A DNA stretch of 16,533 bases, taken from positions 1 to 16,533 of the forward strand of contig JAMCWZ010000055.1 in assembly GCA_023480765.1 (NCBI GenBank), read 5' to 3'. Positions within the stretch are counted from its first letter, which is position 1. The number at the start of each line of letters is the position of its first letter. Below the pieces are notes generated by a model, which was given only the letters and a program-made list of their open reading frames with translations, did not search any database and was not told the origin of the DNA. Positions 1,931 to 12,128 of this stretch are shown here, piece by piece. The position numbers and the translations under genes are program-made. The DNA is from Nitrospirota bacterium (GTDB lineage: Bacteria; Nitrospirota_A; Leptospirillia; Leptospirillales; Leptospirillaceae).

Positions 1931-2620
1931 ATGGAAAAAACTTCACAATACCCGGGGACCCTGATCGCGATCGAGGGTACGGATGGTTCCGGTAAAACGA
2001 CTCAGTCTGAACTGCTCAAGCACTTTTTTGAATCCCGGGGGCAAGGGGTTGTTCTGTCTCCATGCAATACAGCAGAACTGATTCGGGGAGCAATTTCAAA
2101 GCTGAAAGAACGGAACACCCTTGATCCGGTGACGTTCTGTTTTCTTTACGCAGCCGATTTTGTTGACCGGTTTGAACATGTCATTATTCCGGCCCTTGCA
2201 TCAGGCAAGGTCGTCATTGCCGAGCAATATGTCTATACCGTGTTTGCCAGGGCGATGATTCGGGGGATTGAACAAGACTGGATTCGCAAGATGTTTGACT
2301 TTGCCCTGACTCCTGCAAGGACTTTTTATCTTGATGTCCGCTTTGAAGACCTCTTGAACAGAATTCAGTGGAAATCCCGGGATGAAAGATATTTTGATTA
2401 TTATGAAGCGGGGATGGACCTGAATCTTGCAAACCGGAAAAAGGATTCCTTTGTCATCTATCAAAAAAGACTGATTGAGATTTATCGGGAAATGGCCTTG
2501 TCCGATGGCTTTGAAACGGTCGATGCAATGAAGCCAATCCAGTTACAGCAACTGGAGCTCCGACAATCCATCTCGCAGATACTCCGGAACCGGAGTCGCC
2601 GTAAAGGAAGCCGTTCATGA
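1931..2620 (+). CDS. Thymidylate kinase-like protein, divergent copy 1
   Basis: P-loop nucleoside-monophosphate kinase of the thymidylate kinase family (canonical reaction dTMP + ATP to dTDP + ADP). The 229-residue protein has the Walker A loop EGTDGSGKTTQ (15-25), a helical AADFVDRFEHVIIPAL region and a C-terminal YYEAGMDL stretch where canonical enzymes carry the lid. The family's DR(Y/H) motif, conserved in its neighbour, reads EQY here (98-100), so both the acidic and the arginine residue are changed. The TREPGG-type loop of canonical enzymes is also absent (SPCNTAEL instead). It is a clear tandem paralogue of the next gene and overlaps it by ATGA, implying translational coupling. GGGAG at 1917-1921 supports the start. 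Catalysis of the dTMP reaction is uncertain; a different substrate or a structural partner role is possible. Confidence 0.8.
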   Translation: MEKTSQYPGTLIAIEGTDGSGKTTQSELLKHFFESRGQGVVLSPCNTAELIRGAISKLKERNTLDPVTFCFLYAADFVDRFEHVIIPALASGKVVIAEQYVYTVFARAMIRGIEQDWIRKMFDFALTPARTFYLDVRFEDLLNRIQWKSRDERYFDYYEAGMDLNLANRKKDSFVIYQKRLIEIYREMALSDGFETVDAMKPIQLQQLELRQSISQILRNRSRRKGSRS

Positions 2621-3270
2621 CAAGCCATTCATTTCCGGGCAGACTGATTGTCGTCGAGGGGATTGACGGGTCGGGAAAGTCCACTCAGATCGAACTTCTC
2701 GAAAACTATCTCCGGATCAAGGGATTCGGAGTTTTGAGAAACGCATGGAATTCGAGCCAGGAAATCTCCCCCATTATCAAGAAGGCAAAGAAAAAACAGC
2801 TTCTCACCCCTTATGGATTCAGTCTGCTGCACGCAGCGGATTTCAGCTATCGTTACACACACGAAATTCTTCCTGCTCTGAATGCAGGAAAGATTGTCCT
2901 TTCAGACAGGTACATCTATACAGCCATTGCCCGGGACGCTGCCCGGGGGATTCCCCGGGACTGGCTCGTCAATAATTTTCGCTTTGCCATTCGTCCGGAC
3001 CTGACCTTCTTTTTCCGGATGGACCCTGCATTGGCCTATGACCGGATCACCCAGGTCCGGGATATCAAGTACTACGAAGCAGGGCTCGATATGGAGCTTT
3101 CGATGAATCCCCGGGAGTCTTATATCCTTTTTCAGTCCCGCGTTCTCGAGGGGTACGAAAGTTTGGCCAAGGAACACGGATTTTCCGTTCTCGACGGAGC
3201 GAAGCCTGTAGAGGAGACACAGCGGGTTGTCAGACGACTCGTGAATTCCCTGATACAATCCCTGCTCTAA
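2617..3270 (+). CDS. Thymidylate kinase-like protein, copy 2
   Basis: Second member of the kinase pair, 217 residues. Walker A is EGIDGSGKSTQ (14-24) and the DRY motif is intact (97-99, within LSDRYIYTAIAR). The lid-side motif YYEAGLDM matches copy 1. Like copy 1, it lacks the canonical REPGGT loop (NAWNSSQE instead), so both belong to a divergent subgroup and not to the standard housekeeping Tmk. The ATG overlaps the stop of copy 1 (ATGA at 2617-2620), suggesting a coupled, possibly heterodimeric pair in which this is the catalytically better-preserved member. Its stop overlaps the stop of the convergent ppx gene, leaving no room for a terminator. Fold assignment is secure; the substrate is inferred. 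Confidence 0.82.
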   Translation: MTSHSFPGRLIVVEGIDGSGKSTQIELLENYLRIKGFGVLRNAWNSSQEISPIIKKAKKKQLLTPYGFSLLHAADFSYRYTHEILPALNAGKIVLSDRYIYTAIARDAARGIPRDWLVNNFRFAIRPDLTFFFRMDPALAYDRITQVRDIKYYEAGLDMELSMNPRESYILFQSRVLEGYESLAKEHGFSVLDGAKPVEETQRVVRRLVNSLIQSLL

Positions 3271-10111: not shown

Positions 10112-10262
10112 CAAGACTGGTAATTCCCTAAAAGGGCTTTTGGAAACCGCGACCTTCCATCCGGGTGAAATATGGCATCATAGTTCCTTTATCCTATTGC
10201 CCCGGTAAACGAAGGAAGAACGGTGAGTGTCAAGGGAACAGAGGAAAAGACAGGAGGCTGAA

Positions 10263-10379
10263 ATGATCTTGACGGTTGGTAACTGGGGGTTCTTTCAATG
10301 GGCCCTTCTGTTGGGTGTTGGAACGTTGATTGTTTCTGGCTGGTTTATGGTCATTAACGCGATCTACCACAACAAGTAA
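10263..10379 (+). CDS. 38-residue single-helix membrane protein
   Basis: Short reading frame beginning MILTVGNWGFFQWALLLG and ending INAIYHNK, with one long hydrophobic segment (about 8-32) and a short basic end, so probably one transmembrane helix. AGGAGG lies 5 bases before the ATG, one of the best ribosome sites in the window, and a promoter lies upstream, which together argue for a real gene. Size and shape recall accessory subunits of respiratory complexes such as cbb3 or bd oxidases, but no signature confirms that. The next small membrane gene begins 32 bases later. Confidence 0.65.
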   Translation: MILTVGNWGFFQWALLLGVGTLIVSGWFMVINAIYHNK

Positions 10380-10411: not shown

Positions 10412-10600
10412 ATGTCTTTTACAGGGGACATCCGGAAAATGTGGACTGACTCCAAGCCCGTTTTTTTTATTCTCTCCGGGGCGGTTTTTCTCTTTGTCCT
10501 TCTCCTGTTGTCCATGTTGTGGGGGGTGTTTGGTCAGGACACCTTCAAGGCTCATACGGTTCTTCCCGCTGTCCACCCACAAGACAACAAAAACCCCTAG
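10412..10600 (+). CDS. 62-residue single-helix membrane protein
   Basis: Begins MSFTGDIRKMWTDSKP, followed by a strong hydrophobic helix FFILSGAVFLFVLLLLSMLW (about 18-37) and a polar tail ending HPQDNKNP. GGAGG precedes the ATG. It probably has one transmembrane helix. It sits between the 38-residue gene and the MFS transporter, on the same strand and downstream of the same promoter. Function is not recognised; an accessory role in a membrane complex is a guess. Confidence 0.65.
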   Translation: MSFTGDIRKMWTDSKPVFFILSGAVFLFVLLLLSMLWGVFGQDTFKAHTVLPAVHPQDNKNP

Positions 10601-10748: not shown

Positions 10749-12128
10749 ATGGAAAAGGAAGATTTGACCCCCCTCGAGAAAAAGACATTAATGAGTCTTA
10801 GTCTCATATTTTCAATCAGAATGTTTGGTCTCTTTATCGTTTTGCCGGTCATTAGTCTTTATGCCCGGAAAATGCCCGGATCGGATCCCTTTTGGCTTGG
10901 ACTGGCGCTGGGAGGGTACGGTTTGACACAGGCTCTGTTCCAGGTTCCTTTCGGGATGTTGTCCGACAAGCTTGGAAGAAAGCCTGTTATTGCAATGGGT
11001 CTCATTATTTTCTTTCTGGGGTCCGTCGTTGCGGCGGAGGCCCACTCGGTGGAGACACTCTTCCTGGGGAGACTTCTTCAGGGGGCAGGAGCCATCGCGT
11101 CGGTCATCATCGCCTTGATGGCAGATTTGACCCGGGAAGAAGTGCGTACCCGTGCCATGGCCGGAATCGGGATGTCGATCGGGCTGGCATTTGCCATGGG
11201 AATGATTGTAGGCCCGATTGTCGGAGCTCATTGGGATGTTTCTGTTCTTTTCTGGATGACGGCAGCCCTTTCTCTTCTGTCTCTCGTCATTCTTTTTGCC
11301 GTTGTCCCCAACCCGCAGGGTGCAGTCCAGAAAAACGAGATGGAGCTTTCCATTGACCAATTGGGATACGTTCTCCGTGTTCCGTCGCTTTTAAGAATGG
11401 ATTTGTCCGTCTTTGTGCTTCATTCGTCCCTGACAGCCGTGTTTGTCAGTTTCCCGATCCTTCTGTCTTCCTATATGCCGGAAAAAGCGATGTGGCATGT
11501 CTATCTTCCGGTGATTAGATCGGAAGAGCACACGTCTGATCCCGGCATGATCTATGCCGAAAAAAAGAAGAAACTCAAACAGACATTTCTGTTTTCGATT
11601 CTTTTGATCATCGTGAGCTTCTTGATCTTCCTGTCGGGCTATACGAACAAGGTCGGACTGATTGCAGGGTTAACGATCTTTTTTATTGGGTTCAATCTTC
11701 TCGAACCACTTATGCCCTCCATTATGACCCGATTTGTCCGGACAAAAACCCGGGGAACTTCATCCGGGGTCTTTAACATGAGTCAGTTTTTGGGGGCTTT
11801 TGTCGGTGGAAGTGCGGGAGGCTATCTCGTTTCCATTTCAGACAAGGTTTTGTTTGGTGGCCTCTTGATTCTTTCGGTTGTCTGGTTTCTCGTGAGTCTG
11901 GGGCTGACCGATCCCAATCATCTTCAGATCTTTGAACGGGAACTGGGAGCCGAAGTCAATGACCCATCGCCTATCTGCAGGCAGGTTGGGGCAATGACCG
12001 GGGTCATCGATTGCCGGTATCTGGAGAAAACGAAAACACTTTGGGTCAAGTATCTTAAAACGGACCTTTCTTCCGATGATCTGAACCGGAAACTGGAAAG
12101 CCTGATCGCCAACAGTCCGGCCCAATAG
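10749..12128 (+). CDS. YajR-like MFS transporter (sequence interrupted by adapter)
   Basis: Inner-membrane major facilitator superfamily protein of 459 residues, closest in pattern to E. coli YajR, a 12-helix transporter with a soluble C-terminal YAM domain. MFS motif A is GMLSDKLGRK (69-78) and RLLQGAGAI (108-116) follows in helix 4. Other YajR-like parts are the MIYAEKKKKLKQ loop, a PSIMTRF segment and GVFNMSQFLGAFVGGSAGGY. Residues about 395-455 are polar with a ferredoxin-like pattern (GVIDCRYLEKTKTLWVKYL). Residues 257-263 (RSEEHTS) come from an Illumina adapter and replace what should be hydrophobic helix sequence, so this translation is not the true protein. GGAAGGA precedes the ATG. 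Substrate unknown. Confidence 0.85.
   Translation: MEKEDLTPLEKKTLMSLSLIFSIRMFGLFIVLPVISLYARKMPGSDPFWLGLALGGYGLTQALFQVPFGMLSDKLGRKPVIAMGLIIFFLGSVVAAEAHSVETLFLGRLLQGAGAIASVIIALMADLTREEVRTRAMAGIGMSIGLAFAMGMIVGPIVGAHWDVSVLFWMTAALSLLSLVILFAVVPNPQGAVQKNEMELSIDQLGYVLRVPSLLRMDLSVFVLHSSLTAVFVSFPILLSSYMPEKAMWHVYLPVIRSEEHTSDPGMIYAEKKKKLKQTFLFSILLIIVSFLIFLSGYTNKVGLIAGLTIFFIGFNLLEPLMPSIMTRFVRTKTRGTSSGVFNMSQFLGAFVGGSAGGYLVSISDKVLFGGLLILSVVWFLVSLGLTDPNHLQIFERELGAEVNDPSPICRQVGAMTGVIDCRYLEKTKTLWVKYLKTDLSSDDLNRKLESLIANSPAQ
11517..11539 (+). other. Embedded Illumina TruSeq adapter (assembly contamination)
   Basis: The 23 bases starting AGATCGGAAGAGCACACGTC and ending TGA are identical to the TruSeq read-through adapter; the match stops where the adapter would continue ACTCCAG. 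In the reading frame it gives RSEEHTS, a peptide well known as adapter contamination in protein databases. It preserves the frame, so the gene looks intact. Confidence 0.97.

What the first reader, a model, noticed from the sequence alone, without database searches (positions are those of the whole stretch)
11517..11539. Illumina adapter embedded in an intact-looking transporter gene
Twenty-three consecutive bases equal the TruSeq read-through adapter, translated as RSEEHTS. From memory of E. coli YajR, about 10 residues (helix 8 start) lie between the VYL-type and IIYAE-type segments, and about 10 lie here (RSEEHTSDPG). The adapter therefore seems to have overwritten a similar length of true sequence, which is why the frame survives. 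Any analysis would accept this ORF as real, although a charged peptide has replaced membrane helix.
Basis: partly seen in the sequence, partly recalled or inferred. Interest (0 to 1): 0.8.

Follow-up and report, generated by a model that had tools for sequence, protein, structure and literature searches.

The report
Sequencing adapter overwrote part of gene
A 23-letter piece of Illumina sequencing adapter stands in place of the same length of real sequence in a membrane-transporter gene of a Leptospirillum-like bacterium; it is an assembly error, not biology, although the gene still looks intact.

Summary
Window 11517-11539 equals the first 23 bases of the Illumina TruSeq read-1 read-through adapter; the 24th base differs. 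It lies in frame in a 459-aa MFS transporter ORF, 10749-12128, closest in sequence to the solved transporter 3wdo.

Of 49 homologues, the 48 that cover the site align through it without a gap and carry an uncharged hydrophobic octapeptide where the window has RSEEHTSD. DNA identity to the nearest relative held (L001) is 82% over the gene but 6 of 23 in the block, the lowest of the gene's 23-base windows. It is an exact-length overwrite, not an insertion, which is why the frame survives.

The position is what is less usual: in a capped IMG/VR sample, 126 of 127 copies of this 23-mer lie within 300 bases of the contig end to which they point. The trimming rule of a published survey (PMC11536531) would leave this one.

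Verdict: assembly artefact, confidence 0.98. How it came to sit in register (most likely one read's untrimmed tail entering the consensus) is inferred; raw reads are not available.

The parts
11517..11539 (+). First 23 bases of the Illumina TruSeq read-1 read-through adapter, standing in place of 23 genomic bases
   Evidence: Exact match over 23 bases; 5 or 6 of 23 identical to each of five relatives' DNA
10749..12128 (+). MFS transporter ORF (459 aa) that contains the artefact; residues 257-264 are false
   Evidence: ORF list, Pfam MFS_1, 3wdo E 1.1e-88, homologues

Best explanation
It is an assembly artefact. A library fragment ended at 11516, so read 1 ran on into the adapter, and about 23 adapter bases stayed untrimmed at the end of that read. 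The read was laid against overlapping genomic sequence without gaps, and its adapter tail won the consensus in a thinly covered place. The adapter therefore stands base for base in place of 23 genomic bases, and the frame continues. Shown: the adapter match, its read-through orientation from the first adapter base, the exact-length replacement and the loss of homology in those bases. Inferred: that a single read's tail in a read-alignment consensus, mapping-based polishing or gap filling did it.
For: 23 of 23 bases equal the adapter from its first base. 48 of 48 homologues that cover the block fill it without a gap and are hydrophobic there. Against L001 the block is the worst of 1,358 23-base windows of the gene: 6 of 23, against at least 13 of 23 for windows away from it. 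Window and L001 proteins are both 459 aa; outside the block 180 codons differ silently and 29 change the residue, inside it 1 and 7. P0002 differs from the window at 12 of 459 residues, 7 of them in the block. A gapped blastn alignment puts 5 bases extra on each side in this place, net zero. The 23-mer is in none of the loci L001-L018, and its 18-base prefix in none of the genomes of L001-L003.
Against: No reads, depth or assembler are known, so the route is not shown. The usual form of adapter contamination lies at contig ends (PMC11536531), and this copy is 4,994 bases from the nearer end. The one other interior frame-open case I found, L167, is 6 bases shorter than its relatives, so exact register is not general. 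With distant relatives the block does not stand out alone: it is 11th worst of 1,358 windows against L004, and the lowest windows elsewhere are 4 of 23 for L004 and 6 of 23 for L009.
Confidence: 0.98

Rival explanations
1. Adapter artefact by another route: two reads or contigs, the left one tailed with adapter, were joined by scaffolding or gap closing, and the zero net length change is luck.
For: L167 is an interior adapter patch in an open frame that is 2 residues shorter than 40 of 40 relatives, so inexact joins do occur. Adapter-to-adapter junctions occur in L155 and L158.
Against: The replacement here is exact to the base, and no second adapter piece is present in the window.
Confidence: 0.25
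2. The 23 bases are really in the organism's genome, as a natural replacement or a coincidence.
For: The frame is free of stops across the site, 269 codons before and 195 after it, and the contig continues for 4,994 bases.
Against: Expected number by chance about 5e-10. Charged residues stand where none of 48 homologues has any. The rest of the gene looks under purifying selection.
Confidence: 0.01

Closest known systems
Illumina TruSeq adapter contamination of microbial assemblies (PMC11536531; parts 1 and 2 of 3 of the text read)
   Same: Same adapter core and read-1 continuation, from untrimmed read-through, in an assembled contig
   Different: The paper finds adapters concentrated at contig ends, pointing outward, and trims those within 300 bases of an end; here the copy is deep inside the contig and the genome resumes in register
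Interior adapter patch in L167 (IMGVR_UViG_3300038673_000385, 346-369)
   Same: Adapter prefix (24 bases) inside an open frame, genomic sequence resumes, same RSEEHTS peptide
   Different: 2 residues shorter than 40 of 40 relatives, so not in exact register; only 345 bases from the contig's left end
MFS transporter 3wdo (recalled as E. coli YajR)
   Same: Aligned over residues 6-427 at E 1.1e-88, no gap in the block
   Different: Has its own sequence, not adapter, in the block

Membership tests
Illumina adapter contamination | Long exact match to an adapter | tested here: met
   23 of 23 from the first adapter base
Illumina adapter contamination | Foreign to the locus: absent from relatives | tested here: met
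   0 of 18 loci carry the 23-mer; block identity 5-6 of 23 in the five relatives aligned of the 18
Illumina adapter contamination | Located at a contig end, pointing outward (typical, not obligatory) | tested here: not met
   4,994 bases from the nearer end; 126 of 127 IMG/VR copies are within 300 bases of an end
Illumina adapter contamination | Reads ending in adapter at the site, no clean spanning reads | not testable with these tools
   No raw reads available
MFS / YajR-like transporter (host gene) | MFS_1 domain | tested here: met
   4.2e-44, 151.3 bits against a cut-off of 33.4
MFS / YajR-like transporter (host gene) | Sequence match along nearly the whole of 3wdo | tested here: met
   Chain residues 4-427 of 453; the identity of 3wdo with YajR is recalled
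MFS / YajR-like transporter (host gene) | Transport activity | not testable with these tools
   None

The most novel reading that the evidence does not exclude
In-register adapter overwrites form a small, little-noticed class of assembly error: interior, frame-preserving, and missed by end trimming and by gene-integrity checks. They leave adapter peptides such as RSEEHTS inside otherwise sound proteins in public databases.
Probability: 0.35. Interest if true: 0.3.

Novelty: not a real feature. Interest (0 to 1): 0.12.

Why it matters
As biology it does not matter. As quality control it shows that adapter contamination can sit deep inside a contig, keep the reading frame and pass a family search, so that alignments or structure predictions that use this protein contain eight false residues. 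Screens should look for adapter prefixes, or their translations, anywhere in a contig and not only at its ends.

Tried and rejected
The window's own genome is not held, so other adapter copies in the same assembly could not be counted. A plasmid search gave no match. A search of 61 genomes around G001 found the gene in 21, none closer than the 82% of G001 itself, the genome of L001. Rfam and tRNA scans of the window were empty.

Literature: searches for adapter-derived peptides found 0 papers. Searches were seen as listings only, except PMC11536531, which one search listed and of which I read parts 1 and 2 of 3. No title among the 10 papers is about interior adapters; I opened none of them.

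A 20-base adapter prefix turned up in 2 of 395 genomes drawn from the phylum. Both lie near the end of the stretch held, 1 and 182 bases after the adapter, presumably the contig end. One of them (L152) runs into an inverted adapter copy.

I looked for the same kind of error in IMG/VR with prefixes cut at 19, 22, 23, 24 and 28 bases: 18 loci. I read the sequence of 7 (L153, L154, L155, L157, L158, L166, L167). The other 11 I judged only by the listed positions, which put each about 110 bases or less from a contig end and pointing outward. Of the 7, four are adapter with an error near a contig end, two are adapter-to-adapter junctions, and only L167 is interior with an open frame; it is not in exact register. 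Other cut lengths were not searched.

Considered and rejected: an insertion (no length change), a natural mutation (chance and conservation), and an adapter-dimer junction as in L155 and L158 (no second adapter in the window).

On recheck I mended one statement: the 11,014 windows are not 'outside the gene' but all ungapped windows shared with L001, the block itself excluded by gaps. I also added.

Full report
OBSERVATION. Bases 11517-11539 on the + strand are identical to the first 23 bases of the TruSeq read-1 read-through adapter; the next window base differs from the adapter. The 13-base core occurs once in the window at up to one mismatch. The expected number of chance matches to one given 23-mer is about 5e-10. 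With the site masked, no stretch longer than 10 bases of the read-1 or read-2 adapter remains.

CONTEXT. The 23-mer lies in the ORF 10749-12128 (459 codons). Pfam scores it as MFS_1 (E 4.2e-44). Its best solved relative is 3wdo (E 1.1e-88, query residues 6-427), which I recall as E. coli YajR. The 18 relatives found in genome contigs come from MAGs titled Leptospirillum sp. or Nitrospirae bacterium; L001 is the nearest, at 92% protein identity. The window's own protein is recorded on a contig of 16,533 bases, so the window is probably a whole contig.

WHAT WAS REPLACED. I aligned the window protein with P0001-P0050, the first 50 of 120 listed of 7,716 hits. P0001 is the window itself. Of the other 49, P0049 has no residues at the site. 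The remaining 48 fill the eight columns of the block without a gap, none has a charged residue or histidine there, and their mean Kyte-Doolittle values run from +2.20 to +3.25. The window has RSEEHTSD at residues 257-264, mean -2.56. P0042 lacks six residues shortly after the block. P0002 differs from the window at 12 of 459 residues, 7 of them inside these 8 codons.

DNA TEST. In a MAFFT alignment of the gene with five relatives (L001, L002, L003, L004, L009, of 18 loci held), identity in the block is 6, 5, 6, 6 and 5 of 23, while whole-gene identity is 82, 73, 70, 64 and 63%. Counted from the lowest, the block ranks 1, 3, 2, 11 and 1 of 1,358 windows of 23 bases. Only against close relatives does it stand far apart: the lowest window elsewhere is 13 of 23 for L001 but 4 of 23 for L004. 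In a longer blastn alignment with L001, the lowest of 11,014 ungapped 23-base windows has 10 matches; the block itself is not among them, because blastn put gaps in it, 5 bases on each side, net zero. Outside the block, codon differences from L001 are 180 silent and 29 changing; inside they are 1 and 7. The gene is thus an ordinary conserved one with a foreign patch of exactly adapter length.

HOW UNUSUAL. They hold 127 copies; 126 lie within 300 bases of the contig end to which the adapter points, the farthest 213 bases beyond the adapter match. For the 20 stretches that cover only part of their contig, strand and range show that the end in question is the contig's own. The one exception, L035, carries at least 34 adapter bases followed by what I recall as an index and the P7 end. 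Of 395 genomes drawn from the phylum, 2 have a 20-base prefix. PMC11536531 (parts 1 and 2 of 3 read) reports adapters concentrated at contig ends and trims contigs with one within 300 bases of an end. By that rule a copy 4,994 bases from the nearer end would be left.

SEARCH FOR THE SAME KIND. Prefixes cut at five chosen lengths and followed by a non-adapter base gave 18 loci in IMG/VR. I read 7 of them and judged the other 11 by their listed positions near contig ends. One, L167, is interior with an open frame: 24 adapter bases in a polymerase-A frame. Against P0121-P0160 (40 of 120 listed) it is 2 residues short here; 40 of 40 fill those columns. Interior, frame-preserving adapter patches therefore exist elsewhere, but exact register is not shared by this second case.

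MECHANISM. Shown: adapter identity, read-through orientation, exact-length replacement, absence from the relatives held. Inferred: one read's untrimmed tail of 23 bases, aligned without gaps, entered the consensus at low depth. My reasoning, not a test: in a plain k-mer graph an adapter tail is a dead end and would not rejoin the genome in register, so consensus calling, polishing or gap filling is the likelier step. A lucky join cannot be excluded; the 0.25 given to that rival is shared within the artefact reading (0.98), not added to it.

VERDICT. Low biological interest, modest value as a quality-control example.

Noticed in passing
10227-10379 and 10412-10600 (+): Two small ORFs (50 and 62 aa, each with a hydrophobic stretch) in the gap before the transporter. 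tblastn finds the first in 16 and the second in 16 of the 18 relatives' loci, all but L006 and L007, in each case just upstream of the transporter. In L001 the first match runs through a stop near its start, so its true start is probably later. No name found; not searched in family libraries.
   Followed up: partly
1931-2620 and 2617-3270 (+): Two thymidylate-kinase-like genes in tandem, overlapping by 4 bases, both matching Pfam Thymidylate_kin above its cut-off.
   Followed up: no
L167 346-369 (+): A second interior adapter patch in an open frame, in a polymerase-A-like gene of an IMG/VR contig, 2 residues shorter than relatives.
   Followed up: partly
L155 (- strand, adapter start 5078) and L158 (+ strand, adapter start 6381): IMG/VR contigs in which the read-1 adapter runs straight into what I recall as the reverse complement of the read-2 adapter and then into other sequence: probable adapter-bridged chimeras.
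   Followed up: no
   Followed up: no
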